Source: Humulus lupulus
Lineage: Eukaryota; Streptophyta; Magnoliopsida; Rosales; Cannabaceae
DNA: 64,000 nucleotides
Assembly (NCBI RefSeq): GCF_963169125.1
Contig: NC_084794.1
Span: 86,535,018-86,599,017 of the forward strand
Direction of reading: 5' to 3'
The first letter of the stretch is position 1; each line of letters starts with the position of its first letter. The position numbers and the translations under genes were made by a program. Under the pieces are notes generated by a model. It made no database searches. It was not told the DNA's origin and worked only from the letters and a program-made list of their open reading frames with translations. Shown in pieces: positions 7,285 through 63,562 of the stretch.

Positions 7285-10200
7285 TGTCATGCCCAAACTT
7301 CCCCGGGACACGCGACAGTGATCGATGAACCGGAAATTTGACTCATTGCTTGAGTCCTTTGGTTAAAAACGTGCTTCTAGTGTCATTATTAGGTTAAGGA
7401 GAAAAATCAATAAAAAGGAAATGATATATTTTATTAAAAACTGTTCATGGGCCCACCAGAACATTTACAAGTTATTTACATCTCAAAATGCCCATTACTA
7501 TTCAAAATTTACAACCCGCCGACCTAAGCGGCAAAATTAGGGTAAACCCCCTAGTTCCTCTGAGAACTTCTTGGCCGTAGTGGTCAAGCGGCCGCATATG
7601 TACACAGCGTCGCCTCAGCTCTCCACTTAAGGCTGGGTGAGCTTTTCTTTCCCTTTACCTGCACCACATAGCACCCATGAGCCAAAGCCCAGCAAGAAAA
7701 CACATATTGTAAGTAAACAATATCATATGATGTAATTACATCACACAGAGCTTACAGCTCTAAGCTGATGAGTGACTGTTGGGTAAGTCTCTAGTCATCA
7801 GATGAACAGGTGACTAATGAGTCACACCTTGAACAGGTGACTGATGAGCCACACACTTTGGACAGGTGACTGATGAGCTACACACTTTGGACAAGCGACT
7901 GATGAGTCACACTCCGGTTAGGTGACTAATGAGCCACGCTCTGGAGGTCCCATACCCTCCTAGCCATGTGACCTGTGGGTCACCTTAGCCTTTTCCGGCT
8001 TTGGCTCTAGATTTCTAGCCTTGGGCAAAACAAGGGCGTATTAATATTCATCGAACTTGAGGTCAGTCCGGCATTAATGCTCATGTGAGTCATTCAATGC
8101 AGATGTCGATTAGATCTAATCTTTGTTGGCTTGCATTAGGCATGCAAAAACCATCCTTGACTTATGAGTCAATGCCCTGACTAATGAGTCAGTACCATTC
8201 ACAAGTAAGCAATGCTACCAAGCATATATCATAGGTCAAATATATAAACATGGGCATTCATCATGCTTACTTAACAGTTGCTAGCATAATAATGATCATG
8301 CACAAACACAGAGACTCAAGCTCTGAACAGTTTCATAGTGAGTATTCATGGCATGCCTTAATGATATCTTTCTACAAATGAGCAGGTGTAGAGTCCAAGA
8401 ACTTTACTTAGCTAGTTAGATAGTAGTAGTAATAGTAATAACTAGTAGTAGTTGTAGTATGTTTATGACTGTGGATTTTGGTTCAAGCCGGGACTTAGTT
8501 GGAAACTCCTAGCAATAGTTATGGATTTTATAAGTTTAACCTATAGTTTAAGAATATTACTTATAACATAAGGTTTGATTAATATTTCTAGTTATTAATA
8601 TGATAATTATTATAACCTAAGGTTTAGATAGAGCTAATAAGAATATGACACTTGTCATGAGCATGGTTATTCCTAAGGTTTAGATAGAGCCAATAGGATT
8701 ATGTCACTTGTCATATGCATGGTTATTAAGGAATTATTATTTTAATGATAAAATAAGGGAAATATAAGACTTGTCTTCACCAGAATATGTTAGGAGCATG
8801 ACATTTATCACAATTTTATTTATTTGTGTTATTTAGATAATTAAATAGATTTTTCGTAACTTTAGGGTACTGTAACTTCTGACCTATTTTTGACCCAGTT
8901 ATGTTATGAATTTTGAAAAATAGTATTTCTAGAACGTTGTAGATAATTTAATTACCTTTCTAACAGTATAAAGAGAGTCTAAATCAGAATCCTATAGCTC
9001 CAGATATGTTTATTTTACTGTAGAGGAGTTTAGAGTTACGAGATTTAGGGAGTTAGAAGTTAGGATTCTATTTGTTTTTATTATTTTTGTTTTAAAAATC
9101 AAGCTTTGAATCCTTAAATCTCTCTGAACAATTTGACCAATTCCTAAGCCTTTGGCTGAAGGATATTCAAATATTTTCAATTAAATTTATTATTTTTATT
9201 CAAAGCCAAAAAGAAGATTTTTATTCCTAGAACTCTATAAATAGGACTTAGCACCAAGCATTTTCATTCATTCTTCAAGCATTGATCAGAGCCTTCCAAG
9301 TGCTAGTGAGACTATAGAGTGATAAACACTTGGGTTGGGGTTATAATTTGAATCATTATAAGCTTAATAAATACTTGGGAAGTAAGGTTCATAGTGTGTA
9401 TTTTGGTTTCGAGGTGTAGTTCGATCATAGCAATTTCAAAGGTATTCCTATTCTTAGTTCCTTTCAGTATTGTTTCATTAGTTTTATAGTCCTAACTCAG
9501 TCTTATCTATTCTTGGTTAGGTATCTAAGTTCTTTGAACTTGAGGTTTCTTGTCGGTAAGAATATTCTCGGTGGTTTTTAGTTCATTCATCGATTTCTTT
9601 TAGAATACTCACCTCTATATTATGGTTTTTAGCAGTGTTCCAAAATCCCGACTTTGTTCTCATCATCCCGGTATATTGGTAAGGAAAATAGGATAGGATA
9701 TTATGTGTTATGCCATATGTTATCTTATGATTTATGTGTTATGTTAACTTATGATTTATGAGTTATGTATGTTTGTAGACTTGGGCATATGACCTGTACA
9801 CTAACAAGCCCCAATAAATCTATGGGCATATGACTTGCTTAGCTAGCAAGCCCCACAAATCTAATAGGCATATGACTTGTTTAGTTATGGGACCCCAAGT
9901 AATAATGGCCATTATAGTAGGTGTGGCATATGTTTATGATATGTTTTATTATATGTTACGTTATGAATTTTATGTTTATGAATTATGTGTTAGATTTTCC
10001 TTGCTGGGCATTAGGCTCACTCCTTTATGTTTATATGTGCAGGAAAATAGCTTTGGTGGCGGGAAAGGTTCTTGGTAGCTTAGGGATGTGTATTGAGGCG
10101 GGATGGAATCGATGGACCGAGCGTTCGATTCGAGGATGAAGTTTCTTTACTTATGGTTTTATGTGTATTTTTCCGCACTTTATTATGTAATCCCTTTTAA

Positions 10201-11846
10201 TTACAATTATGTTATGTTTTGATTTTAAAACAATGGGATCTCATATCCTACTTTAAATTTTAAGTAAGTTTAACATTTATTTTTACAAGCTTTTAATAAA
10301 GTTATGATCATTTCACTTGTAAGTTTTATTAAGGATTAGTGTCTATGGATAGTTTTCGTTAATGGTCCAAAGTTTAGAGTAGTTGGGTCATTACAGCAGG
10401 CTTTCAAAGCATTCAATATGCTATCCATGTCCACATTTAACCATCCAACACGCATCAAAAAGTATAACCATGCATGTCTCATTTGGGGGTGCAGTTTCTT
10501 ACATTGTTTTCTTACCTCAGATTCGAGCTAAAATGAGTAAGAGAATGACCCTTGAGAACGATCTGACTTTAAGTCCTTTAGTGGTCACCTAATCATAACC
10601 AAATAAGGAATACCATTAATAAAGTAAATCAATGAATGGTTCACAATCTAAACCACACTCCCGGGATCAATCCCTCACTCTCGGGACTCTCAAACTACTC
10701 AAAAGGGGCAAAGGAACCAACCCCCGAGCCTTAGAAACCATCCCGAGCCCTAAAAATAACTTTCCCTGAAACTGACCTAGCGCCTAGGCGCTGCCCACCA
10801 GCGCTGGGGCGCTGCCTCAGAAACAAAGAGGGTTGCTCTCAGCCCTGCATAGCGCTGGGGCGCCAGCTTCAGACCAGTAGCTACACAGATTTTCCCTCCT
10901 TGCGATTCCCCTTGAAACCAACTTTCCAAACCAATCCCAAACCTTACCAAAACATCCAATTCAACCCCTAAACTTCACCTACATCATCCCCTCATCAAAA
11001 CCCAATCAATCTTACACAAAAACTCCCATTGATTCCAACTATCCACATCAAAATCAAGAGCTGCAACTAACAACCAAAATAGAGCATACATGGAAACTAC
11101 TGGCTAAAGACTTACCTCAAGTTCAGGTTGTGGTGCTCTTCAATGGTGGATCACTCTCCCAAACTCCCAAGGCCTACTTTCCAAGCTTAAATCCTCAACA
11201 AAATCACCACAAATCACAAAGGAGATGGAGGAAGGAGAAGGTACAGGTAGCTTCACTAACTTGCTCTGTTTTCTCTTCAATTTTATAGCTGAACTCAATT
11301 TATATCTATCCTAGGGGTAAAAAGACCATTATACCCCTAGGTCAATTAAAGATTTCTAAAGGCTCCCAAGGGAAAATTTGACCTTTCCAACCTATCTCGT
11401 TAATCATAATTAACGCTCTCCAATTCTCGCTATTCTCGATAATCCCAAACACCAATAATTCATATCCCGTTACCCTTTTACTCCCGGCAACGTTCTAATC
11501 ATTAAAACATCCAGAGACTCACCCCGAGCCTCGAACTTAATCCCGTTATGACTAAACCGCTGCTTAATATTCAAAGATCATCTCATGCCAAATAGCTCGA
11601 ACAGATCCACATTATAATGTGGCATCAACAATATATCACCGACATGCATACAAATATACAATTACGCCCTCAACGGGCCAAATTGCCAAAACAATTCAAT
11701 TAACAAATGTGGACCCACATGCATGAATATAACATTATATTATGATATAATTCACATAATTATCTAATAGCATAATTAAACAAGTATGGCCCTCCAGGCC
11801 TACTAATCTTCCCATTAAACCACATCGGAGAATTCGGGGCATTACA
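7285..11846 (-). mobile_element. Family-L solo LTR (reverse) with nested family-S solo LTR
   Basis: On the plus strand the LTR runs from TGTCATGCCC (7285) to GGGGCATTACA (11846). The 5-bp target duplication is ACTAC at 7280-7284 and 11847-11851, a perfect match. There is no internal coding sequence or primer-binding site, so this is a solo LTR left by LTR-LTR recombination. Without the nested LTR at 8387-10395 and one TSD copy it is about 2.55 kb. It includes a GC-rich block with GCGC palindromes (about 10778-10875) and the inverted CTGGGC..TGAGCC motif near 7670-7700. Confidence 0.85.
8387..10395 (+). mobile_element. Family-S solo LTR inside family-L LTR
   Basis: A 2,009-bp LTR starting TGTAGAGTCCAAG and ending GGGTCATTACA, with a perfect GCAGG duplication (8382-8386 and 10396-10400). 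Its ends match the 3' LTR of Gypsy-6. A TATA box (CTCTATAAATAGG, about 9233-9245) marks the promoter. The TTGCTGGGCATTAGGCTCA motif is at about 10000. Unlike the other two full-length family-S LTRs in the window, it has no GGCGATATATCGCC block. It is probably an older or different subfamily. Confidence 0.88.
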
Positions 11847-12745
11847 ACTACCTCGGGCCTGGAGGTCCTTAGCTTGGAGGACCTCGAACAGCTCGGCCCT
11901 GGAGAACCTCAGAACCTTTGAGCATTCCTCTTGCTCGATTCCTTGAGATCCTCAAAACCTTGAGCATTCTTCTTACTTGGTTCCTAGAGGTCCTTGGAAC
12001 CTGGAGCATTCATCTTGCTCGGTTCTTAGAGAACCTCGAAACCTGGAGCATTCATTTGGCTTGGTTCCTAGAGGTCCTCAGAACCTGGAGCATTCTTCTT
12101 GCTTGGTTCATAGAGGTCCTTAGAACCTTGAGCATTCATTTTACTTGGTTCCTAGAGGTCCTCAGAACCTTTGAGCATTCATCTTGCTCGATTCCTAAAG
12201 AACCTAGGAACCTGGAGCATTCATCTTGCTCGGTTCCTAGAGAACCTTGAAACCTTTGAGCATTCATCTTGCTCGGTTCCTTAAGGCCTTCGGAACCTTG
12301 AGAATTCTTCTTGATTAGTTCCTAGAGGTGCTCGGAATCTTTGAGCATTCATCTTGTTCGATTCCTGGAGAACCTTGGAACCTGGAACATCCATCTTACT
12401 TGGTTCCTAGAGGTCCTTGGAACCTTTGAGCATTCATCTTGCTCGGTTCTTGGAGAACCTCGGAACCTGGAGCATTCATCTTGCTCGGTTCCTAGAGAAC
12501 CTCGGAACCTTTGAGCATTCATCTTGCTCGGTTCCTTAAGGTCCTCGGAACCTTGAGCATTCTTCTTTTTTGGTTCTTAGAGGCCCTCGGAACTTGGAGC
12601 ATTCATCTTGCTTGGTTCCTTGAGGTCCTCGGAACCTAAAGCATTCTTCTTGCTTGGTTCCTAGAGGTCCTCAGAACCTTGAGCATTCTTCTAGGAACCA
12701 CGTAAGAAGAATTTGTCTCCTTGAGTCACTTGGATATTCAAGCAT
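11847..12745. repeat. Minisatellite array, 42-43-bp unit, part 2
   Basis: The first about 70 bp continue the 16-bp type. From about 11918 the array becomes about eighteen copies of a 42-43-bp unit, close to GAGCATTCATCTTGCTCGG followed by TTCCTAGAGGTCCTCGGAACC. Each unit holds the inverted pair GGTTCC/GGAACC, so each copy can fold. An apparent 110-residue ORF here is a 14-residue repeat and not a protein gene. The array fades at about 12700-12745, where Gypsy-1 pol sequence begins. Confidence 0.85.
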
Positions 12746-16497: not shown

Positions 16498-17037
16498 TGT
16501 AACGCCCTGGGTAGCCAAGACCGTTACACCGTGTATTTATAAAGGTGCAGGACTTGCTAATCAAGTCTTTTAGTTGAAAACGTGTCACTAAAACATTAAT
16601 GAACTAGGGTTAAAAAGGTTTTGGTCATAAAAGATACATTTCATATATTTAAACGTTTTGTACAAGGGATCCCAAAAGAAACAACGTTTGAAAGTTAGTT
16701 TACAAAATTTCAAGGAACAAACAACCACTAGCCACTCTAAGGGCAAAACAGACATTTACGGTCCTCCTCTTCCTGTCCATCCCTCAACTGTGGCAGCCGA
16801 GGAGCTAGACATGTACATTCCGCTTTGAGAGCTCTCCGAATAAAGGCTAATCAAGCTTACCCTTGTCTTTATCTGCACCATGTAGCACCTGTGAGACAAG
16901 GCCCAGCAAGAAAACATAACCTCAAGCACAAACATTGATAATAATCATATAACTCTTAAAACATATTCACACATTTAGTAATCCATAATAATCACATAAC
17001 TCACAGATATAACCAGGAACCACAAATTATTACTCAG
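16498..17037 (-). mobile_element. Gypsy-1 5' LTR, U3 side lost
   Basis: Only the 3'-most about 540 bp of the Gypsy-1 5' LTR remain, from TGTAACGCCC at 16498 to about 17037. It is about 95% identical by eye to the start of the solo LTR at 17095. At 17037/17038 it changes abruptly into Gypsy-2 pol sequence, so the promoter half of the LTR was lost in a deletion or recombination joining the two elements. Confidence 0.75.
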
Positions 17038-17094
17038 TTAACAAACTAGATCTCCCTGTGCGGCGACAGCCTCGACAAATTCTCAGGGAACACA
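17038..17094 (-). pseudogene. Gypsy-2 pol remnant beside solo LTR
   Basis: These 57 bp translate on the minus strand as FPENLSRLSPHREI, matching the RT N-terminal PEDLPGLPPHREI of related elements, followed by a stop. They directly continue the pol sequence that breaks off at 19469 when the solo LTR (17095-19468) and one copy of its duplication are removed. This short piece shows that Gypsy-2 extends left of the solo LTR. Confidence 0.8.
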
Positions 17095-19468
17095 TGTAAC
17101 GCCCTGGGTAGCCAAGACCGTTACACTGTGTATTTATAAAGGTGCATGACTTGCTAATCAAGTCTTTTAGTTGAAAACGTGTCACTAAAACATTAATGAA
17201 CTAGGGTTAAAAAGGTTTTGGTCATAAAAGATACATTTCATATATTTAAACATTTTGTGCAAGGGATCCCAAAAGAAACAACGTTTGAAAGTTAGTTTAC
17301 AAAATTTCAAGGTACAAACAACCACTAGCCACTCTAAGGACAAAATAGACATTTACGGTCCTCCTCTTCGTGCCCATCCCTCAACCATGGTGCCCGAGCA
17401 GCTAGACATGTACATTCCGCTTTCAGAGCTCTCTGAATCAGGGCTAATCAAGCTTACCCTTGCCTTTACATGCACCACGTAGCACCCGTGAGCCAAGGCC
17501 CAGTAAGAAAACATAACCTCAAGCACAAACATTGATAATAATCATATAACTCTTAAAGCATATTCACACATTTAGTAATCCATATTAATCACATAACTCA
17601 CAGACATAACCAGGAACCACAAATTATTACTCAGCTATTCAGCATGTCATATTCAACAGTTAACAAAGATAATCAGATCACACAATAATCAGGGTCAATG
17701 CCCTTAGGTCGCACCCTCTATTTACCCCACTAACTCCAGTCCGCTTAAACCGAGCTCAGTGAATATTAAGCTGTCCTCAGCTATCGGTGGTTGAGCCGTG
17801 CCCTATGCGCCAGTGTAAACTCCGGCACTCTTAGGCCGTTGATTTAATATTCTCATGGTATAATACCAACTTTCATAATGCATACAAAAATAGGGAACCC
17901 TTAGTCCCATCATAAATTCATAACTGGGTGCAGTTCTCTTACCTATGTTCCGAGCTTCTTGAGCACCGAAATCCCGAGCGCGGTCCTCTAGCCCGTGCCT
18001 CACCGAAAACCTAGTCACAACACATACATAACACTTTCATTACTAACCAATTCATAATCATCTCGCGGAACCAATCCCGTGCTCTCGGGACCTCCCGTTT
18101 CCCCACACAAGGTATCGAAAGCGTCCCCCGAGCCCCCTGAGCCAAAACCCTAAAAACCCAAATTTCCCTTTCCTGAAATTAGCCTAGCGCCGTGGCACAA
18201 CCCTATAGTGGCCGCAGCGCCCAGAATGGTCCCCATCTCCTGATTCAACCTAGTGCCGCGACACGGAAGAACAGGGCGGCGGCGCTCATACGCGAATACA
18301 GAAAACTGGGTTTTTCCCAACATTTTTCCCGAGCCAAAACTCTTCCAAATCAACCCCAAGGTACACCCAAGTCCCAATTCAACCTTAAACTCCAGATAAA
18401 CAGTATGGAAACTCATAAACCATAGCAACAAACCCAAACACACAATCAAACCCAAGAATCACCTAATGGCTCAAAATTCCCAAAACTTAAACCACCCTTC
18501 AGAATATTTAAACCACACAAGAAATTAAACTTTAGAGATGCATGAAACTCTTACCTCAAGTAGAATTTCAACCTTGAGCTGCTTCCCAATCAAATTCCAA
18601 ACTTAATTCTCTTGATTCCCAAGCTGAACCTCACCAAATCTTCATTCCAATGACCCACAAGATAAAACAAAACTCAACTCACTAATTAAACACTTCCAGC
18701 AAGAATTCATCAAGATTTGAATTAAAACTTACCTTTGATCCTAGCTAAGCCCTTTATGCTCCTGAGTTTCTGCTTTAAAATCCTCCAAAACCAACACCTT
18801 AGAGAGGGAGAGGGAAAACCGATTGGGAGAGGAAGAGAGAAAAATTGAAAGTTTCCTTTTGGTTATTTCCTTATAATTCTCTTCTACATGCCCCTAGAAT
18901 CAGTTGCCTTATTGATCAAAATCCCCTTCTATACAAAAGGTCCAAAATACCCTTGAACTTATTTAAATCCTTAGGTGCCTCCAAGGGCAATTTAGTCATT
19001 TCACTCAAATCCTGCTAAGTCCTCAAGTATTCTTGAAAATCCCCAACATGTCTAAACCATTACTAAATTACTAACTGCTACTCAATAATTCCCAAACACA
19101 TTATAATATTCCCAAAATACCCCTAAGCTCCTCCCGAGCCAGGTATTTGACCCTGTTGTGACTTTCTAACTAAAGGACTCCTTAGGACCGTCTCGGGTCG
19201 TGCATCACAATCATATCACCACTCACACATGATATCAATCACAGTATATACAAATATCACATTTATGCCTTCAACAGGCTAAAATTACAAATATGCCCCT
19301 AGCAACCAAATGGGGCCCACATGCATATTTCATATATTCATATAATCATTCAAGCATGCTAGACACAGAATTATGCATTAAACTACTTAATTCACACATA
19401 AACCAATCGTGCCCTCCTAGCACACTAACAAGGCCTTTACGCCTTATTAGTGATTTTGGGTCGTTACA
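17095..19468 (-). mobile_element. Gypsy solo LTR (Gypsy-1 family) in Gypsy-2 pol
   Basis: A complete LTR of about 2.37 kb. On the plus strand it runs from TGTAACGCCC to GGGTCGTTACA, with a perfect ACACA duplication at 17090-17094 and 19469-19473. It interrupts the LDVFPE motif of Gypsy-2 pol. It carries the inverted CTGGGC..GAGCC motif (about 17470-17505) and a GC-rich block with GCGCC/GGCGC palindromes (about 18183-18295). Confidence 0.85.
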
Positions 19469-20034: not shown

Positions 20035-21959
20035 TGTAGAGTCCAAGAACTTTACTTAGCTAGTTAAATAGTAGTATTATAGTATTTATAGTATTATCTT
20101 TATGACTGTGGATTTTTGGTTCAGACCGGGAATTATTTGGACACTCATAGTAGTACTTGTAGATTTTCTAAGTTTAACCTATAGTTTAAGAATATTAATG
20201 TTAACCTAAGGTTTGATTAATATGGCTGATATTAAGGTTAATATTTATTATACTATAAGGTTTAGATAAGAACCAATAGGATTTTAAGCACATGTTATGA
20301 ATGGGTGATTAAGGATTAAGTATTTTGAGGATTAAATTTAGTAAGGGTAAAGTTTGAATGCTCTAAGGTCAGTCAACAGCTTTGAATACGTTTAAGGGCT
20401 TAGTCAAGGCTGTTTACTCAATTTGAATTAAGCTAAAAATGTGTAATTTCGTGTTTAAATAATCAGCGAATGCCAATATATCGCAGCTATGGGGGGCGAT
20501 ATATCGCAGCACGTAGATACGGAAAACACGAAACGATGCACGGCAGCCTCGGGCATACTGGCCCAGGCGATATATCGCCTACAGGGGGCGATATATCGCC
20601 TCCTTCAGCTTATTTTGAAAGTTTTTGAATTTGTTTTCCATTCAGCCATTCAACCTTTTGATAAGTCCAGCACCTTTTTGAACGAGTCTTCAGCCTCTGC
20701 TGAACGATGATTCAAATTATTTTCACCTAAAAAGCCATTATTTTTATTCAAGTTAAATTAAGATCCTTTCATTCCTAAACTCTATAAATAGAACCTAGTA
20801 CCCAGCCATTATTCACCTTTTACTCTAAGTTCAGAGGCTGCAAGTTGCTAGGTGAGTGTGAGAGTGTAAACACTTGGGTGGGGAAATCATAAGCTTGATC
20901 ATCATAAGCTTATCAAACACTTGGGGAAGTAAGGTTTCATAGTATTTCGGTTCAAGGTTTAGATTGGTCTACAAGTCTTCAAGGTATTTCTACACCTTAG
21001 TTCATTGGTATTATTTTATTTTAAGTTCTCATAGTCTTCTACTCAGCCTCTAACCTAAATCTTTATTTTGGTTTGGAAATCTAAGTTCTTGAGCAAAAAG
21101 GTTTTGGTAAGAATTTTTCTCAATGGTTTAGTCCTTCCATTTCCTTTCATTTCTCTTCTTCTCTATACTCACTCTTTTTCAAATGATTCTTAGGAGTGTT
21201 CCAAAGTCCCACCTCTGTCCTCTTATCCCGGTAATTTTGGTAAGGAAAATAGGATAGAAATTCATATGTTATATGTTTTATATGTTATCTTATATTTCTT
21301 ATGTTATGATAAGTGTTATGATATGTATGTTTGTAGGCTTGGGCATATGACCCATATGACTAACAAGACCCCAAATAGATTATGGGCATATGACCTACTT
21401 AGCTAGCAGGACCCCACTAATCTCATGGGCATATGACTTGTTTAGTCTATGGGACCCCAAGTAATAATGGCCATTATAGTATGTGTATGATATAAGTGTA
21501 ATGTATGTTATGTTATGTTTTTTTATGTTTCTTATGAAATTTATGTATATGAACTATGTGGTAGATTTTCCTTGCTGGGCATTAGGCTCATTCCTTTTTG
21601 TTTATATGTGCAGGAAAATAGCTATAGTGGCGGTAAGATTCGCGGATGCTTGGGGAATGTGTATCGGTGATGAATGGATTCAAGGAGTCGAGAGTTCGAT
21701 TTTCGAGGATGTAGTCTTGTTTTTATGGTTTTACATGTATTTTCCGCACTTGTTATGTAACTCCTTTTTATTTTAAATTATGTTTTGTTTTTAAAGACAA
21801 TGGGATCCCATATCCTACTTGACAAATTATGTAAATAACTCTTATTTTTACAAGTTTCCTAATAAAGTTATGGTATTTTCACAATGTAAGTTTTATTAAG
21901 GATTAGTATGTTTAGTTTTCGTTAATGGTCCAAAAGTCTAGAGTAGTTGGGTCATTACA
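20035..21959 (+). mobile_element. Family-S solo LTR in Gypsy-2
   Basis: A 1,925-bp LTR from TGTAGAGTCC to GGGTCATTACA with a perfect TGAAC duplication (20030-20034 and 21960-21964). It closely resembles the Gypsy-6 3' LTR, including the TATA box (CTCTATAAATAG, about 20780-20791) and the TTGCTGGGCATTAGGCTCA motif (about 21571). It has a block holding two copies of the perfect palindrome GGCGATATATCGCC (about 20569-20602). It has no internal region, so it is a solo LTR. Confidence 0.9.
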
Positions 21960-52832: not shown

Positions 52833-54083
52833 TGCAACGCCCTAAACTCCAGGGACCGTTACGGTGTGCCTTCTAAATAGTGCTAAACCAGCTAATCGAG
52901 TCATTTGGCCAAAATTATGTAACTAAGTATGATTAGTGGTTTAGGGATTAAATTTTTTGGATAAGATATAACGTTTCATTAGAACGTTTAATATATATAT
53001 TGGGATCCCAAAATTGTAATTTCAGAGTTCACTAAAAGAAAATATTTACAACAGGCCGATCTAAGCAACAAAATAGGGTTCAACCCTAGTTCCTCTTCAA
53101 ACCTCGGTCGTGGTGGACGAGCAGCTGCTTATGTACACATCATCACCTAAGCTCTCCAACTCAAGGATGGTTCAGCTTTCTTTTGCCTTTACCTGCACCA
53201 CATAGCACCCGTGAGCCGAAGCCCAGCAAGAAAACTTAATATGCTTATGAACAATTATAACATGTCATCAAATCATCAGACACACGCCTAGCAGATATAA
53301 CCTTAACCAAGCAGGCAAACTGATTCACACATAATGATGGGTATCCAGGATAAAGAATCCTACCCTCCTGAGTGGACGACTATCAAGTCAATCTCAATCA
53401 GATAAGTGATTTATCACTGGTGGTTCCGGTAACCATACCGGGCTGATAGCCTTCAATAGAGTAGTGACAGTGGTACAAGTCACTAAGGTGGGTTCCGCTC
53501 CCTTTATAAATAAGTGATCCTTTCACTAGTTTAAACAGGATAGGTGCATGATGATTAGCACCAACATAACCTTCCTCATGACCCTAGAGTCATAACTATG
53601 GAACACTGTTCCCTAGCCATGTGACAAGCAGTCACCTCGGCCTTAGGCCCTGGCTCTGAGTAACTAGTCCTAGACTAGCCAAGCGTTTATAATTTTCATC
53701 GACCTTCAGGTCGGTCCAACATTAATACTCCATACGAGTCATTCAACGCTGATATAAATTAGATCTAATCTTCATTCGGCCCTGTGTCCTCGACACTTAA
53801 GCTGTTTCTGACTCTCAGGTCAGTGAAACACGACCAGTGCTCAACCCGTTGTGAACTTGACTAATAAGTCACAGCTTCACAGACGGTTCTGACACCATTG
53901 CCGATTCTGACTAATAAGTCAGTGCCACACACAAGCAAGCAATGTTACCAAACATATATCATATGTCAATTATCCGAATATAAGGTATTCCGCATGCTTA
54001 CTTAACCATTATCGGCATAATTAGGACCATGCATAAACACAGAGGCTCAAGCTCTGACCAATCTCATATTCGATATTCACGGC

Positions 54084-54377
54084 TGTAATGACCCACTAAT
54101 CTAGACTAATTGGACCATTATCGAAACTATACATAAAAACTTACATTTTACGAAAATACCATAATTTATTGAGTAACTTGAAAATAAGAGTTATTTACAA
54201 AGAAACAGAATACTAAGAAGGATTTTGGGATCCCATAATCCTTCTTAGTATTCTGTTTCTTTGTAAATAACTCTTATTTTCAAGTTACTCAATAAATTAT
54301 GGTATTTTCGTAAAATGTAAGTTTTTATGTATAGTTTCGATAATGGTCCAATTAGTCTAGATTAGTGGGTCATTACA
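54084..54377. repeat. 294-bp palindrome replacing the Gypsy-6 5' LTR
   Basis: Two 147-bp arms (54084-54230 and 54231-54377) are exact reverse complements except for one visible mismatch at 54236. Each arm is the last 147 bp of the LTR, so both outer ends carry the U5 terminus (GGGTCATTACA and its complement). The centre is GGGATCCC, a palindrome that is also present at this point in the 3' LTR (about 61976-61983). The left end abuts the target duplication exactly and the right end abuts the primer-binding site. Confidence 0.95.
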
Positions 54378-54379
54378 GT

Positions 54380-54391
54380 TGGTATCAGAGC
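54380..54391 (+). other. Gypsy-6 primer-binding site (tRNA-Met)
   Basis: TGGTATCAGAGC, a perfect tRNA-Met complement, two bases after the LTR end at 54377. Confidence 0.95.
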
Positions 54392-54537
54392 AAACGGTTC
54401 CTTCGCATGAAGTTCTCCTCGATACACATGCTCAAAGCTCCGAATCGGACCGCCAAGTAAGTGTTTAAGTTACAAGTTACAAGTTACTTTGTCTATGTGT
54501 ATAGCTAACAACTTTAGTGTTTATGTTTCAGTTAAAA

Positions 54538-55005
54538 ATGAATGGAACTTTAACCTACCAAGATATCCGAGCCATTAAGGCCTTAAAAAGAATAAGGGAG
54601 CCAAGAAACACCGTAGGAGCCTTAGAAAGGATTACACGAAGGTTGCTTTTGTTTCACCAAGCAATAGGTGGCCTTCAAGAGGCTAAACAAATAATGCTAA
54701 GATCAACGGAACAATATGTATTAGTGATTAGGTTGTTTAAAGATTTCCATCCTGTAATAGCAGCCTTAGAAGAAATATGGGAAGAAATGAATGATGAGGA
54801 TGAATCACCATTAGCAATGAGATACTATTTCCTCTTAGTTAGGTTCACCGCAAAATTTGAATTTCAATTCACCAAGGAGCAAAAGAATAGGATTCTCACA
54901 AACCTTCCTAGAGGGCATTTTGATGCTCATGATAATGATGACTATGAGGCTATAGATGATGATATGTTAGATGACGGATCGGATGTAGAAGATCCCGATT
55001 TTTAG
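54538..55005 (+). CDS. Gypsy-6 pre-gag ORF (ORF0), 155 residues, unknown function
   Basis: A complete ORF between the primer-binding site and gag, in a place where chromoviruses normally have only leader. From the ATG at 54538 (MNGTLTYQDIRAIKALKRI) it encodes a helical protein with a basic first half (ALERITRRLLLFHQAIGGLQ), then EQYVLVIRLFKDFHPVIAAL, EEIWEEMNDEDES, YYFLLVRFTAKFEFQF and a very acidic tail (DNDDYEAIDDDMLDDGSDVE). An in-frame ATG at 54523 or earlier would add a few residues. I prefer 54538 because its context follows a short leader. About 60 bp downstream AATGAATAAA could be a poly(A) signal. I recognise no domain. The Gypsy-3 ORF at 33319 occupies the same place. Confidence 0.65.
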   Translation: MNGTLTYQDIRAIKALKRIREPRNTVGALERITRRLLLFHQAIGGLQEAKQIMLRSTEQYVLVIRLFKDFHPVIAALEEIWEEMNDEDESPLAMRYYFLLVRFTAKFEFQFTKEQKNRILTNLPRGHFDAHDNDDYEAIDDDMLDDGSDVEDPDF

Positions 55006-55530
55006 ATTAGTAGTTTTTATTTGTTTTATTTACTTTTATGTTATGATTGTAATAAGTGAAATTGTTTTCCAAATGAATAAACATGCTATTTGAATATCAT
55101 GTGTGAGTTTGAAATTTTTTTCACAATCATAATAAATACTAAATAAAATGAATAATGACTGAGTTCGGTGAGGGTGGATACGAATCAATGAACCTGGTTT
55201 CCTTGTTGAGAGTTAGGGGGCCTTAGTAGTGGGAACGATTTTACTGATCCCAGCCCTCCCTCAATATGGTTAACTTTGGAACAAAGATAAGTTTCGAGCC
55301 TGAGAATTAAGTCATATAGGATGATTAGAAACACACTTAGAAAATAAATATGACTTGTTTTTCTAAGTATAGAAACCCACTCTAATAATAAATAAAGACC
55401 TATATAATTTTTCATAAAAAGTCATAATAAATAGGTCCGAGATATGTTTGTTTTAGAATAAGTTTTTGCCTTAGAGCCTATTAGGAAAAATTTCTAACAT
55501 GTTTCTTTTAACTGTTAGAACTCTGCTACG
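55006..55530 (+). other. Gypsy-6 leader between pre-gag ORF and gag
   Basis: About 525 bp with no ORF. It contains the structured module at 55201-55269 and an AT-rich stretch up to the gag start codon. TTTTCTTTTAACTGTTAG just before gag looks like a 3' splice site. If used, splicing could bring gag near the cap and skip the pre-gag ORF. Confidence 0.5.
55201..55269 (+). other. Structured leader module in Gypsy-6
   Basis: CCTTGTTGAG (55201-55210) can pair with CTCAATATGG (55260-55269) in nine of ten positions counting one G-U, around a 49-nt loop. The loop holds GTAGTGGGAACGA (55226-55238) and ACTGATCCCAGCCCTCC. The loop matches the Copia-4 module at 50654-50721 while the stem bases differ, which suggests selection on the fold. 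Confidence 0.55.
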
Positions 55531-57219
55531 ATGTCTCTCCGAAGATCTGCTCGCACCAACGGGAACGCTTCCAACGATGTTCCAGCGACCAATGCGGTCC
55601 CTACCGTTCGCCGAAGGAGAGTACGTGTTACTGCTCGCCGCAACGCACCGGCACAGCCAGCTGACAACACTGCAGAGATTGCCAGACTACGACAGCAAGT
55701 CGAGGAACTTCTGCAGCAACAACGCCAACAGGCTCAATCTCAGCCTCAGCCTCCGCCACAGCCGCAGCCGCAGCCACAGCCAATGGCCCCAGCACCCCAA
55801 CAAGTTGGTCCGTATGGGGGATGGCCTATGACGAACTACGCTCCTTATCCTGTTCAGCACATGGAGCCAGTGTACGAGAGGTTCCGCAAGCAGCACGCTC
55901 CGAACTTCGAAGGGACTACGGACCCCTTTGAAGCAGAAGAATGGCTAAGGAATGTGGAGCCGATCCTAGCCCACATGAACCTTAGTAATGCAGACCGCAT
56001 ATCCTGCGTCTCATCTTTGCTCAAGAAAGATGCCAGGATATGGTGGGACTTGGTCCAGCAATCCCACGATGCTGCCACCATGACGTGGACCCGATTTGTG
56101 GAGCTCTTCCACAAGAAGTACTACAATTCAGCAGTGCTTGCTACGAGAGTTGAGGAGTTCACCAATCTGAAGCAAGGGAATTTAACAGTGGCGGAATATG
56201 CTCGTCAGTTCGATCGCTTAGCGAAGTTCGCAGCAGAGTTGGTTCCAACCGACTATCTAAGGGTGAACAAGTTTGTTAGAGGACTTCGCCCGAAGATCGA
56301 GATGGGGGTTAAACTAGCAAACCCGGGAAACACTTCATATGCCGACGTTCTTGAGACGGCAATTGAAGTAGAAAGGTTGCAAGCCAACGTGAGCAAAGAA
56401 GAAGCCAGCAAGCCGGAACCTAGGCAGCAGAGCCAACCTCAGGCCAGTCGGAACAACAATCAGTCCAGCAACAGTCAGTCCAACAACAACGGTAACGGAC
56501 AGAAGAGAAGGCATCCTGACAACAAGCAAGCCGACAACAATAAAAGGGCACGACCAAGTAATGGGGGAAATAGGTCGGGCTACGTGGAATACCCGCCATG
56601 TGCCAAATGTCAGAAGAAGCACCCCGGAGAATGCCGTGCCAACACCAAGGAGTGTTTCAACTGTGGTCAAGAAGGGCATCGTAAAAGAGACTGTCCTCAG
56701 CAAAAGCCGGAAGGAAAGAAGGACGAAAAGATGGTTCCTGCTCGGGTTTTTGCCTTAACCCAAGGAGAGGCGGATGCTAGCAACAAGGTGGTCACAGGTC
56801 AGGTTTCCATCCTCAATAAATTATGTCATGTATTATTTGATTCGGGAGCCACCCATTCGTATATTTCGTTAGGAATGATAGATAAACTAGACAAACCTAG
56901 TGAAAGATTTAGAACTAGGTTTGCAACCGAGTTGCCTTCGGGCAAAGTAGTTCTATCATCACGAATTGTACGAGGCGTACCAATCAAGATTGAGGACAAG
57001 GAACTAGAAGGAGACCTGATAGAGCTGGTGATCAAAGACTTCGACGTCATACTAGGCATGGATTGGCTAGCACGGCATGGCGCAACGATCGACTGCAGAC
57101 GCAAGAAGGTGACATTCGATACTCCTGACGGCCAGAAACTGTGCTTCATGGGACAAGCTTCAGGACTACGCACACCGTTAGTATCATCTCTCAAAGCTCA
57201 GAGAATGATGGAGAAATGA
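55531..57219 (+). CDS. Gypsy-6 gag-protease
   Basis: A 562-residue product that assembles the particle and contains the protease. The N-terminus is Arg-rich, then a Gln/Pro-rich stretch (residues 55-92). The gag capsid region follows (YERFRKQHAPNFEGTTDPFE, 114-133; DARIWWDLV, 167-175; LTVAEYARQFDRLAKFAAEL, 218-237; KFVRGLRPKIEMG, 247-259). The CCHC knuckle is CFNCGQEGHRKRDC (375-388) and the aspartic protease has an intact LFDSGATHSYISL (D437) and VILGMDWLARHGATIDC. The frame ends at a TGA (57217-57219), where relatives have a Gly codon, and the following pol is in the same frame. So gag-pol was probably one ORF, broken by a GGA to TGA change, unless the stop is read through. The start is the first ATG of the frame. 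Confidence 0.95.
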   Translation: MSLRRSARTNGNASNDVPATNAVPTVRRRRVRVTARRNAPAQPADNTAEIARLRQQVEELLQQQRQQAQSQPQPPPQPQPQPQPMAPAPQQVGPYGGWPMTNYAPYPVQHMEPVYERFRKQHAPNFEGTTDPFEAEEWLRNVEPILAHMNLSNADRISCVSSLLKKDARIWWDLVQQSHDAATMTWTRFVELFHKKYYNSAVLATRVEEFTNLKQGNLTVAEYARQFDRLAKFAAELVPTDYLRVNKFVRGLRPKIEMGVKLANPGNTSYADVLETAIEVERLQANVSKEEASKPEPRQQSQPQASRNNNQSSNSQSNNNGNGQKRRHPDNKQADNNKRARPSNGGNRSGYVEYPPCAKCQKKHPGECRANTKECFNCGQEGHRKRDCPQQKPEGKKDEKMVPARVFALTQGEADASNKVVTGQVSILNKLCHVLFDSGATHSYISLGMIDKLDKPSERFRTRFATELPSGKVVLSSRIVRGVPIKIEDKELEGDLIELVIKDFDVILGMDWLARHGATIDCRRKKVTFDTPDGQKLCFMGQASGLRTPLVSSLKAQRMMEK

Positions 57220-60171
57220 TGTCAAGCATTCTTAGCCAACATCACGAATGTGGAGAAGGAGACATCACTCAAAGTTGGAGATGTTCGAGTTATACAAGAA
57301 TTTCCAGAAGTTTTCCCCGATGACTTGCCAGGATTGCCGCCAACTAGAGAAATAGACTTCACGATAGAATTAGTACCCGACACCGAGCCTATCTCTAAGG
57401 CACCATACCGGATGGCACCTACGGAACTCAAGGAGTTAAAGACACAGCTACAAGAACTCCTAGACTTGGGTTTCATTAGGCCAAGCCATTCACCATGGGG
57501 AGCTCCGGTACTATTCGTGAAGAAGAAGGACGGAAGTATGCGCATGTGCATAGACTACCGAGAGCTGAATAAAGTAACAATTAAGAACAAATACCCGCTA
57601 CCTCGGATTGATGATTTGTTTGATCAACTCCGAGGCGCAACTGTATTTTCTAAGATCGATCTACGGTCCGGGTATCATCAGCTCAAGGTAAAGGGAGGAG
57701 ATATCCCTAAGACAGCCTTTAGGACTCGTTATGGACATTACGAGTTCTTGGTAATGTCTTTTGGTCTTACTAACGCGCCAGCCGCGTTTATGGACTTAAT
57801 GAATAGGGTCTTCAAGGACTACTTGGATAAATTCATCGTTGTGTTCATCGACGACATTTTAATTTACTCCAAGGATGAAGTGGAGCACGAGGAACACTTG
57901 AGGATAATTTTGACGCGATTGAAGGAGCACCAACTCTACGCGAAGTTCAAGAAATGCGAGTTTTGGCTCTCACAAGTGGCGTTCCTCGGGCACATCATAT
58001 CGAAAGACGGAGTTGCAGTAGATCCATCGAAGGTAGAGGCCGTGAAAGATTGGCCTAGACCAAAGAACGCGTCGGAAGTAAGAAGCTTCTTAGGGCTAGC
58101 AGGTTACTATAGAAAGTTTGTAGAGGGCTTTTCTAAAATAGCCACTCCACTCACCAACCTGACCCGGAAGCAACAAAAGTTTAACTGGAATGATAAGTGT
58201 GAGGAAAGCTTCCAGTTGCTTAAGGATAAGCTTTGCTCAACACCAGTACTTAGTGTCCCAACACCCAACGACAAGTTCGTTGTCTACTGTGATGCATCAA
58301 AGTTAGGATTGGGATGCGTACTGATGCAGAATGACAAGGTGATAGCCTACGCCTCACGTCAGTTAAAGGAGTATGAACAACGCTATCCAACTCACGATAT
58401 GGAGTTGGCAGCGGTGGTCTTTGCGTTAAAAATCTGGCGCCATTATCTTTACGGAGAACAGTGCGAGATTTATACGGACCACAAAAGTTTAAAATACTTC
58501 TTTACTCAGAAGGAGCTTAACATGAGGCAGAGCAGGTGGTTAGAATTAGTAAAGGATTACGACTGCGAAATCCTATACCACCCGGGGAAGGCAAACGTAG
58601 TTGCCGATGCACTTAGCCGAAAAAGTTATGGGAACTTAGCAGCCTTATCCGGAATAGAAAAGCCACTACAGCAGGAGCTTATCAGTGCCGGAATAGAAGT
58701 GGTTGTAGGCAAGTTGGCTAACTTGTCTATCCAATCGAATATGCTAGAAGACATACGGAATGGTCAGAGACATGATGATTCACTAGCAACGCACATGGAT
58801 GCAGTCAGAGAAGGCAAGACTACAGATTTCTCAATATCCAGTCAAGGTTTATTGAGATATAAGGATCGGGTATGCGTGCCAGACGATCAAAGTATTAAGA
58901 AGACGATCCTAGAAGAAGCGCACAACACCCCATACTCGATTCATCCAGGGTCTACCAAGATGACTCATGACATCAAGGCAGTCTATTGGTGGCCAGGGAT
59001 GAAGAAGGACATAGCGGAATATGTATCTAAGTGTCTGGTATGCCAGCAAGTGAAGGCGGAGCATCAGCGGCCTGCAGGATTATTGCAACCGCTTAGCATA
59101 CCGGAGTGGAAGTGGGACGATATAGCCATGGACTTCGTGACGGGTCTGCCAAAGACAAATAAGCAGCATGATTCTGCTTGGATAGTCATAGATAGACTAA
59201 CCAAGTCGGCTCATTTTCTGCCTGTTAAGACTTCTTATACGGCAGACCAATATGCAGACATCTACATCCAAGAGATTGTACGATTGCATGGAATCCCCAA
59301 GACGATAGTATCAGATAGAGGATCAGTGTTTACGTCAAGATTTTGGAGAAGCTTACAGAAAGCCATGGGTACTAAGTTAAGTCTTAGTACAGCTTTCCAT
59401 CCTCAGACAGATGGGCAGTCAGAGCGTACGATTCAGATTTTAGAGGATATGCTACGCGCATGTGTACTTGACTTCGGAGGATCGTGGAACAAGTACTTAC
59501 CGCTGATCGAGTTCTCGTACAACAATAGCTACCAGTCGACGATCGAGATGGCACCTTATGAGTTGCTATATGGAAGAAGGTGCCGATCACCGTTGCACTG
59601 GGACGAGGTAGGAGAAAGGCAGCTTCTAGGGCCCGAAGCTGTTAGGCAAGCTCAAGAAGCAGTAACGCTTATTAGACAGCGTATGCTTGCTGCTCAAAGC
59701 CGACAGAAAAGCTATGCAGATACCAAGAGACGCGATGTGGAGTTCCAAGTTGGAGATCAAGTCTTCCTGAAGATATCTCCTATGAAGGGTGTCAAGCGGT
59801 TCGGGAAGAAAGGCAAGCTCAGTCCCCGATTCTTAGGTCCTTTTGAGATATTGGACAAAGTGGGACCAGTTGCGTATAGACTAGCCCTACCGCCAGCACT
59901 AGCCGATAGTCACAACGTCTTCCACATCTCGATGTTACGCAAGTATGTGTCAGACCCATCTCACGTCCTCAAGTACGATACCATAGCACTCCAGAAAGAC
60001 TTAAGTTACGAGGAACGACCGGTTAGCATCCTAGATAGGGGGATGAAGCAGTTACGGTCCAAGAGCTTTCCTATAGTTAAAGTCCTATGGAGCAATAGTT
60101 CTGAACGCGAGGCAACGTGGGAGTTGGAAGAGGACATGCAGAGCCGGTATCCGGAGTTATTTGGTAAGTAA
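57220..60171 (+). CDS. Gypsy-6 pol: RT, RNase H, integrase, chromodomain
   Basis: Continuous with gag-protease except for the TGA at 57217. The first in-frame Met of this part is at 57250 (973 residues; positions below count from it). The RT has [20 protein letters not shown] (101-120), [15 protein letters not shown] and the catalytic FIDD (199-202). RNase H has VVYCDAS (D348) and [11 protein letters not shown] (D410). Integrase has the HHCC zinc domain (H558-C599) and the DDE triad D628, D689, E725 with 35 residues between the last two. Then come PRFLGPFEI and a chromodomain-like C-terminus ([20 protein letters not shown]). All catalytic residues are present and there are no stops, so this is the best-preserved enzyme set in the window. 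The domain order and tail place it among plant chromoviruses, probably the Tekay/Del group. Confidence 0.96.
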
Positions 60172-60193
60172 ATTTCGAGGACGAAATTCTTTT

Positions 60194-60207
60194 TAGTAGG
60201 GGAGAAT
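60194..60207 (+). other. Gypsy-6 polypurine tract
   Basis: AGTAGGGGAGAAT lies directly before the 3' LTR start TGTAGAGTCC and follows the FEDEIL-like tail (TTTCGAGGACGAAATTC), a usual arrangement in this group. Confidence 0.85.
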
Positions 60208-62125
60208 TGTAGAGTCCAAGAACTTTACTTAGCTAATTGTTTAGTAGTATTATAGTATGTTTAGTGTTATCATTGTTACTTTGGATTTTTGGTTCAGACC
60301 GGGAGTTATTTGGACACTCATAGTAGTACTTATAGATTTTCTAAGTTTAACCTATAGTTTAAGAATATTAAGTATAACCTAAGGTTTGATTAATGTGTCT
60401 GATATTAAGGAATATATTATTATATTATAAGGTTTAGACATCAACCAATAGGATTTTAAGCACATGTTTTGAATGGTAATTAAGGATTTAGTATTTTTGA
60501 GGATTAAATTAAATAAGGGTAAAAGTTTGAATGTATAGGGTCAGTCAGCAGCTTTGAGCACGTTGAGGGCTTAGTCAAGGCTGTTTACTCCATTCAAACT
60601 CAGCTAAAAATGTGTAAATTCGTGTTTAAATATTCAGCGTATGCCGATATATCGCAGCTATAGGGGGCGATATGAGGCAGCACGTAGATACGGAAAACAC
60701 GAATCGATGCACGGTCGCCTCGGGAACAAAGGTCCAGGCGATATATCGCCTATAGGGGGCGATATATCGCCTCCACCAGCATGAATTCAAATACATTTGA
60801 ATTCTTTTCCCTTCAGCCATTCAAACTCCTTCAACAGTCCAGCATCTTCTGAACGAGTCTTCAGCCTCTGCTGAACGATTATTCAAATGATTTTCACCTA
60901 AAAAGCCATTATTTTTATTCAAGTAAAATCAAGATATTTTCATTCCCAAACTCTATAAATAGGACCTAGTACCCAGCCATTATTCACCATTTGCTCTAAG
61001 TTCAGAGGCTGCTAGTGTTAAGTGAGTGAGAGAGTGTAAACACTTGGTTTGGGGAAAAACTATAAGCTTAAACATCATAAGCTTATCAAACACTTGGGAA
61101 GTAAGTGAGTGCTATAGTATTTCGGTAGATGTTAGATTGATCTTGCAATCTTTGAGGTAAACCCAAAACTCTAGTCCTTTCTGTATTCTATGTTATTTCT
61201 TTTCTCAAAACCTTCTACTCAGTCCCCTAACCTTATTCTTATTTTTGGTTAGGGAATCCAAGTTCTTAAGCACTTAAGTGGTGGTAAGCATATTTTCGTT
61301 TAATGGTTTAGTCTTCCTATTCTCTTTCATTTCATCTCCTTTCTTTAGACTCACCCTTGTTCATTGTGGTTTTAGGAGTGTTCCAAAAGTCCTAACTCAG
61401 TCCATTTTATCCCGGTAACTTTGGTAAGGAAAATAGGCTAGAATTAATATGTTATGTGCTTATGTTATCTATATGTTTATGTTATTAAAAGTGTTATGAT
61501 ATGTATATGTGTATGTAGGCTTGGGCATATGACCCATATGACTAACAAGACCCCAAATGGGTTATGGGCATATGACCTACTTAGCTAGTAGGACCCCATT
61601 AACCCCATGGGCATATGCTTGTTTAGTCTATGGGACCCCAAGTAATAATGGCCATTATAATAAGTGTATGTTATATGTATTATGTTAAGTCTTTATGTTT
61701 TCTTATGAAATTGTGTATATGACTATGTGTTAGGTTTTTCCTTGCTGGGCATTAGGCTCACTCCTTTCTGTTTATGTGCAGGAAAATAAGCTTAGAGGCG
61801 GTAAGATTCGTGATGCTTGGGAGGATGTGTATCGATGATGAATGGAGTCAAGGGGCCGAGCGTTATCGATTCGAGGATGTAGTCTCCTTTTATGTTTTTT
61901 ATGGTTTTACATGTATTTTCCGCATTATTATGTAATGTCTTTTATTTTAAATCTTATTTTGTTTTAAAGACAATGGGATCCCAAAATCCTTCTTAGTATT
62001 CTGTTTCTTTGTAAATAACTCTTATTTTCAAGTTACTCAATAAATTATGGTATTTTCGTAAAATGTAAGTTTTTATGTATAGTTTCGATAATGGTCCAAT
62101 TAGTCTAGATTAGTGGGTCATTACA
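60208..62125 (+). mobile_element. Gypsy-6 3' LTR, complete family-S LTR
   Basis: 1,918 bp from TGTAGAGTCCAAG to GGGTCATTACA. A block at about 60640-60775 has two GGCGATATATCGCC palindromes and partial copies. The TATA box (CTCTATAAATAGG) is at about 60951-60963, and the TTGCTGGGCATTAGGCTCA motif at about 61741-61759. It is the only complete promoter-bearing LTR of this element, so transcription from it would read out into the flanking DNA. Confidence 0.94.
60951..60963 (+). promoter_or_regulatory. TATA box in Gypsy-6 3' LTR
   Basis: CTCTATAAATAGG, a consensus plant TATA box, also found at the matching place in the family-S solo LTRs (about 9233 and 20780). The transcript start is expected about 30 bp downstream, near the ATTATTCACC stretch. 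Confidence 0.8.
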
Positions 62126-63562
62126 ACGGCATGCCCTAATCATATATTTCTCGTGCATAATATGCATCATATTCAACCACTTGACATGCCTTAACAATAA
62201 TCATGCATGCCACATTTAATAATCCAACATGCATCAAGAATAACCATGCATGTCACATATACACAGGGTGCAGTTTCCTTACCTCAGATTCGAGCTAGAA
62301 TCAATATACGAACGACCTTTGAGAACGATCAACCTTTAATCCCTTAGCAGTCACCTAGTCAATAACCAAATATGGGACACCACCAATAAAAATGACCAAC
62401 ATAAGTTCCCAAACCAATATCTAGCCTCCGGGACATAAATCCAAACTAACCCAAGTAGTAGGAACCATCCCGAGGCCTAAAACTATGTTCCCGGGGATAA
62501 AACACACAAACGGGCTCTACCCTGCTCAAGAGTCGCGGCCCTGGCACCTTGTGCGGCCCCCAGCAAAACCTGAAGCAAGCGTTGCGGCGCCCAACACCAA
62601 GGGCCGCGGCGCCCAGCAAGAACAAAACTGGGGCACTTGCTTCTTCGAGCTAGGGTCGCGGCGCCCAAGAACAGGGCCGTGGCCCCCAACCCTGGGCTAT
62701 CCCCAAACACGATTTTCAACTTCCCAAATCCTCCAAAAACATGCCTAAACATTCCCAAATCATCAAATCAAAGTTCCTAAGCTTCCCAATGGTCCAAAAC
62801 CATCAAAACCCTAGGCTCAATTGAACCAAAAACTCAACGATTCACAAAAGCCAATTCTAAGCTTAAAACTTTAAAAACTTAAAACTTAAACTTAGATTAC
62901 CTTTGATTGGGTTGTTTTCTGTCGAATCCTTCGGTTAAGAAGCTTCTAATTTTTCCTAGGATCGCTATGCCTCGACCCTTGCATGATTCCGACTCCTAGA
63001 ACTCAAGATTTCCTCAAAAAGGCTTCGCACGGTAAAATGAGCTAACAAAGGAGAGAGGAAATGTTTTCTAACGTACGTTCTATCTGACAAGCTACTTCAA
63101 GCTTAAGTAACCTCAAATAAAACCTAGTGCTCGGGGTCCCGAAAACAACCCCAGGGACATTATAGTCAAAACTTCCAGAATTTCCTCATAACCTCAAATA
63201 CTCCCAATTTATCATCAAATAAACATTCTTATTACCCGATAATCGACCCCGTTATGACAAAACCGCTAATCAATAATCTAAGATCGTCTCATGCCGAATA
63301 GCTCAAATATATCTCCATAATAATGAAATCTCATTCACAAATTACAATATGCACCCAATTTACAAATATGCCATCAACATGCCAATTTACCAAAATGCCC
63401 TTATAATTATAAATACCCCCATATGCATGCATTTACCATCATATAATAATATAATTCACTTTAACATGCATATAGTCATTTAATACCATAATAAATCCAT
63501 TATGGCCCTCCCGACCACCTAATCAAGGTCCTAACCCTTATTAGGAAATTCGGGGCATTACA

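What the first reader, a model, noticed from the sequence alone, without database searches (positions are those of the whole stretch)
54084..54377. 5' LTR replaced by a near-perfect palindrome of the U5 end, with an intact target duplication
Seen: two 147-bp inverted arms, each equal to the last 147 bp of the LTR, centred on GGGATCCC, which is itself a native palindrome at that point in the 3' LTR. The left tip abuts ACGGC and the right end of the element abuts ACGGC. So both termini of the integrated DNA are U5 ends. Normal integration joins a U3 end on the left. Inference: cDNA folded back on itself at GGGATCCC during reverse transcription, and integrase then accepted a U5-U5 molecule. If real, this shows that a plant gypsy integrase can process two U5 ends, and it gives an element that is born without a promoter. 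Alternatives are a post-insertion inverted duplication or an assembly error.
Basis: partly seen in the sequence, partly recalled or inferred. Interest (0 to 1): 0.88.

Follow-up and report, generated by a model that had tools for sequence, protein, structure and literature searches.

The report
Retrotransposon inserted with two U5 ends
An apparently young plant retrotransposon sits in the genome assembly with its tail-type (U5) end at both tips and an intact 5-bp target duplication; this likely arose because two copies of that end were joined at a short palindrome while the element was being copied, and it suggests that the integrase can use two U5 ends.

Summary
Two 147-bp arms (54084-54230, 54231-54377; one mismatch) replace the 5' LTR. 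The left tip is the reverse complement of the LTR's U5 end; ACGGC flanks both tips, and a paralogous host copy shows the site without the insert. The palindromic centre occurs once in the 2.48-Gb genome. The 39 best other LTR matches come from 23 insertions: 22 are canonical (U3 left, U5 right, matching 5-bp repeats), one was not resolved at its left end. So the U5-U5 structure most likely formed before integration, and integrase would have joined two U5 ends.

The joint has no loop, so two U5 strands probably met at TGGGATCCCA. The one mismatch, T54236, is the base the left-arm strand carries just past the palindrome; 42 of 42 close LTRs read A there. That polarity suggests a minus-strand U5 DNA (5' end = U5 tip) primed on a second minus-sense U5 strand and stood in for plus-strand strong-stop DNA. 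This rests on one insertion; reads were unavailable and cDNA end joining is not excluded. GGGATCCC is also conserved near several LTR ends in the window. New variant of a known kind, not a new system.

The parts
54079..54083 (.). left copy of target duplication ACGGC
   Evidence: single copy (ATGGC) in paralogous host sequence
54084..54230 (-). left arm: reverse complement of the last 147 bp of the LTR (U5 end outward)
54226..54235 (.). joint: TGGGATCCCA, a 10-bp palindrome native to the LTR
54236..54236 (+). T, the only base of the right arm that differs from the 3' LTR; equals the left-arm strand's own continuation (61973 read on the other strand); 42 of 42 close family LTRs read A at the matching place
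54231..54377 (+). right arm: last 147 bp of the LTR, running into the primer binding site
54380..54391 (+). primer binding site TGGTATCAGAGC (initiator-tRNA-Met type, name recalled), 2 nt after the LTR end
55531..57219 (+). gag-protease reading frame
   Evidence: Retrotrans_gag, zf-CCHC, RVP_2
57250..60171 (+). pol reading frame: reverse transcriptase, RNase H, integrase, weak chromodomain
60195..60207 (+). purine-rich tract just before the 3' LTR (plus-strand primer site by position, inferred)
   Evidence: sequence
60208..62125 (+). complete 3' LTR, 1918 bp, TGTAGAG...ATTACA
   Evidence: 97.4-99.7% identical to 20 LTRs of 10 relatives
60954..60963 (+). TATA box TATAAATAGG in the LTR; TATAAATAG shared by the 3 family LTRs in the window; absent from the left end of this element
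61974..61983 (+). native TGGGATCCCA in the 3' LTR
62126..62130 (.). right copy of target duplication ACGGC
8250..8386 (+). paralogous host sequence that crosses the insertion point without an insert there (empty-site evidence)

Best explanation
This is an apparently young Ty3/gypsy retrotransposon with a U5 end at both termini; it was likely made when a short minus-strand U5 DNA primed on a second minus-sense U5 strand at their shared palindrome TGGGATCCCA during reverse transcription, and integrase then likely inserted this U5-U5 DNA in the usual way. Shown: U5 tips on both sides, a zero-loop joint, an intact 5-bp duplication, an empty paralogous site, and canonical ends in 22 of 23 other insertions examined (the 23rd not resolved at its left end). 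Inferred: (1) tRNA-primed minus DNA starts exactly at the U5 tip, was about 153 nt long here, and ended ...TGGGATCCCAT just past the palindrome. (2) Its 3' end paired with the same palindrome on another minus-sense U5 strand (a second strong-stop DNA, or the 3' end of the long minus strand) and was extended over a T-T mismatch, giving a strand U5'-U5 whose 3' end is the U5 end. (3) That 3' end is what plus-strand strong-stop DNA has in the Ty3 model, so the strand could pair with the U5 complement on the minus strand, be extended through the PBS, and be copied to give a blunt second U5 end. (4) Integrase processed both U5 ends and joined them 5 bp apart.
For: Left tip at the exact U5 end with ACGGC on both sides. 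Host flanks are continuous in a paralog with one copy of the 5-mer; the alignment scores 93.5 with one copy and 89.5 with two. The left arm equals the 3' LTR over 153 nt, 2 nt beyond GGGATCCC; the only change in the right arm is T54236, the base expected as carry-over from the left-arm strand. None of the 39 other LTR matches scored in the genome (40 of 1548 candidates scored) has it, nor do 42 of 42 LTRs read base by base, which are those 39 and 3 partners. A random substitution in the palindrome would mimic carry-over of either polarity with chance 0.0023. The centre pattern is unique in the genome. The family is young: 4 of 10 relatives have identical LTR pairs. In the Ty3 model plus-strand strong-stop DNA ends at the end of U5 and pairs with R/U5 complement at the 3' end of minus DNA (PMC5371799, section 6 read). 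Self-priming of minus strong-stop DNA is known for HIV-1 (PMC4668388, passages).
Against: Single case. T54236 is the sixth base from the palindrome centre, where replication or assembly errors are also likely, so it may be an ordinary change. Three divergent family LTRs have a T after CCCA or CTCA in a one-base-shorter context (CATATCC): the solo LTRs ending at 10395 and 21959 and one LTR in L005, so T may have existed in older family members. The conserved TATA box implies a transcript start about 1 kb upstream of the joint (start assumed some 30 nt after TATA, recalled rule), so a 153-nt minus DNA would be a paused product or come from a shortened RNA, not normal strong-stop DNA. RNA folding gave no sign that the palindrome sits in exposed loops (mean unpaired 0.35-0.65 against 0.50 for random places). 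The second host copy tried (4900-5900, reversed) does not align across the insertion point and so gives no support. No read-level check of the assembly.
Confidence: 0.55

Rival explanations
1. The minus strand's own 3' end, copying U5 after the PBS, switched at the palindrome onto the minus strand's 5' end and ran to the U5 tip; integrase then joined two U5 ends.
For: Gives the same arms and the exact tip, and the left arm is identical to the 3' LTR.
Against: It predicts any carry-over base in the left arm (54225), not in the right arm where the only mismatch is. It needs a separate origin for T54236 (an unrelated change, or a second RNA carrying T).
Confidence: 0.2
2. Two broken cDNAs (or a cDNA and a U5 fragment) were joined by microhomology end joining at TGGGATCCCA before integration.
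For: A 10-bp palindromic microhomology; an end-joining polymerase could also leave the T mismatch.
Against: Needs two breaks near the same LTR position. No inserted or lost bases are seen at the joint.
Confidence: 0.12
3. Rearrangement after a normal insertion: the 5' LTR was replaced by an inverted copy of the U5 end.
Against: It would have to end exactly at the TSD/LTR boundary, keep TG...CA tips and ACGGC, and remove the rest of the LTR. Apart from T54236 the three U5 copies do not differ over the 147 bp.
Confidence: 0.06
4. Assembly or cloning artefact: a fold-back read, or a chimera at the BamHI-type site GGATCC in the joint.
For: The joint contains GGATCC; palindromes are prone to artefact (recalled); no reads were available.
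Against: A fold-back read would run on past the U5 tip into mirrored PBS or mirrored right-flank sequence. Instead the left arm meets the true left host flank, shown by the paralog, and a 5-bp repeat of the right flank.
Confidence: 0.07

Closest known systems
Canonical Ty3/gypsy chromovirus insertion (Tekay-like; clade name recalled)
   Same: PBS, gag-pol domains with weak chromodomain, complete 3' LTR, 5-bp TSD, TG...CA tips
   Different: left terminus is an inverted U5 end; the rest of the 5' LTR (U3 and, by the TATA position, most of R) is missing
Self-primed minus-strand strong-stop DNA of HIV-1 (PMC4668388, passages)
   Same: 3' end of minus-strand strong-stop DNA acts as a primer
   Different: here the zero-loop joint implies two strands, and the product became part of an integrated element; HIV-1 self-priming is described as giving heterogeneous aberrant cDNA
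Ty3 plus-strand transfer with recycled PPT primer (PMC5371799, section 6)
   Same: a strand ending at the end of U5 pairs with the minus DNA 3' end
   Different: here the 5' part of that strand would be inverted U5 instead of U3-R
Aberrant retroviral integrations (PMC5041404 and PMC2857682, passages)
   Same: an abnormal viral DNA end is integrated
   Different: those passages describe large host duplications, deletions or inversions when one end is a poor substrate; here the 5-bp TSD is intact, so both ends were probably joined by integrase

Membership tests
Ty3/gypsy LTR retrotransposon | gag, protease, RT, RNase H, integrase in that order | tested here: met
   (one in-frame stop between protease and RT frames)
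Ty3/gypsy LTR retrotransposon | PBS after the 5' LTR end and purine tract before the 3' LTR | tested here: met
Canonical two-LTR insertion | two direct full LTRs, U3 outward left and U5 outward right | tested here: not met
   5' LTR replaced by U5 palindrome here; 15 of 15 two-LTR relatives read have both
Chromovirus | chromodomain at the integrase C terminus | tested here: inconclusive
   Pfam Chromo E=3.3e-4, 21 bits, under the 25.1-bit cut-off
Integrase-mediated insertion | short target duplication and empty related site | tested here: met
   ACGGC twice; paralog has one copy, ATGGC
Integrase-mediated insertion with U5 at both ends | both termini are U5 sequence | tested here: met
Self-primed minus strong-stop product | single-strand fold-back with loop at the joint | tested here: not met
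   zero-loop joint
Self-primed minus strong-stop product | cDNA intermediate present in virus-like particles | not testable with these tools
   needs particle DNA

The most novel reading that the evidence does not exclude
A minus-strand U5 DNA dimer, joined at a palindrome conserved across LTR families, can replace plus-strand strong-stop DNA in reverse transcription of a plant Ty3/gypsy element, and its integrase readily pairs two U5 ends. The palindrome would be a conserved contact point between cDNA (or genomic RNA) copies, and promoterless U5-U5 elements would be a recurrent by-product.
Probability: 0.25. Interest if true: 0.75.

Novelty: new variant of a known kind. Interest (0 to 1): 0.55.

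Why it matters
Integrase use of two U5 ends is usually studied with model DNA (recalled); this would be a natural case in a plant genome with a correct target duplication. If the mismatch is carry-over, the joint preserves which strand primed which, so further genome copies could test a strand-transfer error in plant retrotransposons. The element also has no promoter-bearing LTR at its left end, so it is predicted to be unable to make its own full-length RNA from birth.

Tried and rejected
BamHI-type chimera and fold-back read: rejected as main reading because the left arm meets the proper left host flank and the 5-mer, but not excluded without reads. Single-strand snap-back at GGGATCCC: rejected because no loop bases are missing at the joint. 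Palindrome as an RNA kissing loop: local folds of 8 LTR sites gave core unpaired fractions 0.35-0.65 against a mean of 0.50 for 200 random places, so no support. T54236 as a family variant: suggested by three divergent LTRs, not supported by the close relatives. A second host copy (4900-5900, reversed) as empty site: it does not align across the point. Viral contigs scanned for a U5 26-mer: nothing found, and the tool warns that records of this genome may be left out.

Papers: ten searches; I saw no title or abstract start that reports an integrated U5-U5 LTR element. The lists were capped (for instance 20 of 135, 10 of 32), and I read only passages of PMC5041404, PMC4668388, PMC2615046, PMC11054761, PMC2857682, PMC12789967, PMC4974528 and PMC5371799 and section 6 of the last. 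The library lacks most subscription journals, so this is no proof of absence.

Not obtained: a genome-wide count of the T variant, a scan of all PBS junctions for other U5-U5 elements, and a genome search with the empty site, because the genome search answered only. So other U5-U5 elements with a different joint were not searched for.

Full report
Observation. The palindrome is present in the assembly: 147-bp arms at 54084-54230 and 54231-54377 with one mismatch pair (54225/54236), centred on GGGATCCC. The left tip reads TGTAATGACCCAC, the reverse complement of the LTR's end; the normal U3 start is TGTAGAGTCC at 60208. The right arm runs into the PBS at 54380. ACGGC lies directly before the left tip and directly after the right LTR end. 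In a scan of the window for near-palindromes the next longest arms are 24 nt.

Element. The body has gag, zinc knuckle, protease, RT, RNase H and integrase and a weak chromodomain match under Pfam's cut-off. The best protein matches to gag-pro are from Cannabis and Humulus at 43-55% identity among the top ten of 68 hits. The genome is 2.48 Gb with 121 contigs; its first contig (312.50 Mb) is close in length to a contig listed for a Humulus lupulus protein (312.51 Mb), so the host is probably hop (inferred, not named by a call). The 3' LTR is complete, with a TATA box at LTR position 747 that the other two family LTRs in the window share; this part of the LTR is not present to the left of the PBS.

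Target site. A paralogous host copy at 8250-8386 crosses the insertion point; the joined flanks with a single 5-mer align to it (TATTCACGGCATGCC against TATTCATGGCATGCC) and score better than with two copies, 93.5 against 89.5. So host flanks are continuous and the 5-mer was duplicated on insertion. A second host copy (4900-5900, reversed) does not align across the point and is uninformative.

Controls from the genome. One search with the 294-bp palindrome gave 1548 candidates, of which 40 were scored: the window itself and 39 other LTR copies; each of the 39 matches the left arm over 153 nt at 100% and the right arm over 152 nt at 99%. A pattern for the palindromic centre, without mismatches, occurs at one place, this one. 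I read all 39 LTRs and three missing partners. They make 15 two-LTR elements, 2 tandem arrays of three LTRs, and 6 single LTRs. Of these 23 insertions, 22 have a U3 left end, a U5 right end and a matching 5-bp repeat; one (L039) was not resolved at its left end. The 39 were chosen by similarity to this element's U5, so this is not a random sample of the family. Ten element pairs compared show 0-5 mismatches between their LTRs, four pairs being identical, so the family was active recently.

The joint. The left arm's identity to the LTR goes 2 nt beyond GGGATCCC, to 61973. The right arm differs from the LTR at one base, T54236, which is what the left-arm strand carries there. All 42 of the 42 close LTRs read base by base have A. 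Against this, three divergent LTRs have a T there in a one-base-shorter context, CATATCC: the two solo LTRs of the window and one in L005. A random substitution would mimic carry-over of either polarity with chance 0.0023. If it is carry-over, the strand that runs from the left tip across the joint was the primer. Its 5' end is the U5 tip, as in tRNA-primed minus-strand DNA. The rival, the minus strand's 3' end switching, predicts the mismatch in the left arm. One base is thin evidence, and palindrome centres are places where other errors happen.

Mechanism (inferred). The zero-loop joint means two U5 strands probably paired at TGGGATCCCA; one strand would be expected to lose loop bases on folding there. 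In Ty3, plus-strand strong-stop DNA ends at the end of U5 and pairs with R/U5 complement at the 3' end of the minus DNA (PMC5371799, section 6). A U5'-U5 strand has the same 3' end and could take its place, which would yield the observed element after completion of both strands. Integrase would then see two U5 ends. U3 and U5 tips share 7 of their last 10 bases. A review notes a proposal that RSV integrase is more stringent at U5 than at U3 (PMC12789967, passage), which makes two U5 ends plausible by analogy. A weakness: the TATA box predicts transcription about 1 kb upstream of the joint, so the 153-nt DNA would be a paused or shortened product.

Conserved palindrome. GGGATCCC occurs 8 times in the window against 0.74 expected, with none of 100 shuffles reaching 8. 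Two of the 8 are this element's joint and its 3' LTR, and two lie in one duplicated LTR end. In an alignment of 8 LTR ends from the window (three of this family, a duplicated pair, three others; one of them, at 53002, assigned by similarity alone) the TGGGATCCC block is by eye the best-conserved stretch of the last 200 nt, with one-base variants in two. One close relative's LTR (L050) has a change inside it. Local RNA folds do not place it in loops. It may serve strand contact, but this is untested.

Verdict. The insertion is likely a genuine natural U5-U5 integration with a fold-like but two-strand origin. It is single and informative, but an accident of a known system rather than a new system.

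Noticed in passing
16666, 17263, 21802, 39739, 53002, 61975 (and variants 10235, 23640): GGGATCCC is conserved near the 3' end of LTRs of several families (8 window hits in all, 0.74 expected; the other two are 37517 and the joint 54227), where surrounding sequence has diverged; function unknown.
   Followed up: partly
8387-10395 and 54084-62125: A solo LTR of the same family (TSD GCAGG) sits about 34 bp from the paralogous position of this insertion in another copy of the same host repeat.
   Followed up: partly
20035-21959: Second solo LTR of the family, TSD TGAAC, inside another repeat.
   Followed up: yes
L029-L031 (C2:7298131-7313803) and L035-L037 (C1:173611975-173627603): Tandem arrays of three LTRs at 7738-7760 bp spacing, each bounded by one 5-bp duplication (TCCAG; ATGGT), as if integrated as multimers or made by later unequal exchange.
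   Followed up: partly
57217-57219: One in-frame stop separates the gag-protease frame from the pol frame.
   Followed up: no
54517-55005: A 162-codon reading frame in the leader between PBS and gag, without a Pfam match of note (best E=0.18 for 54535-55005).
   Followed up: partly
11856-12734: Array of 42-43-bp tandem repeats with an 85-bp higher unit.
   Followed up: no
16498-17040 and 17095-17637: A partial LTR end duplicated in tandem (94% identical, 597 bp apart), only the first followed by a PBS.
   Followed up: no
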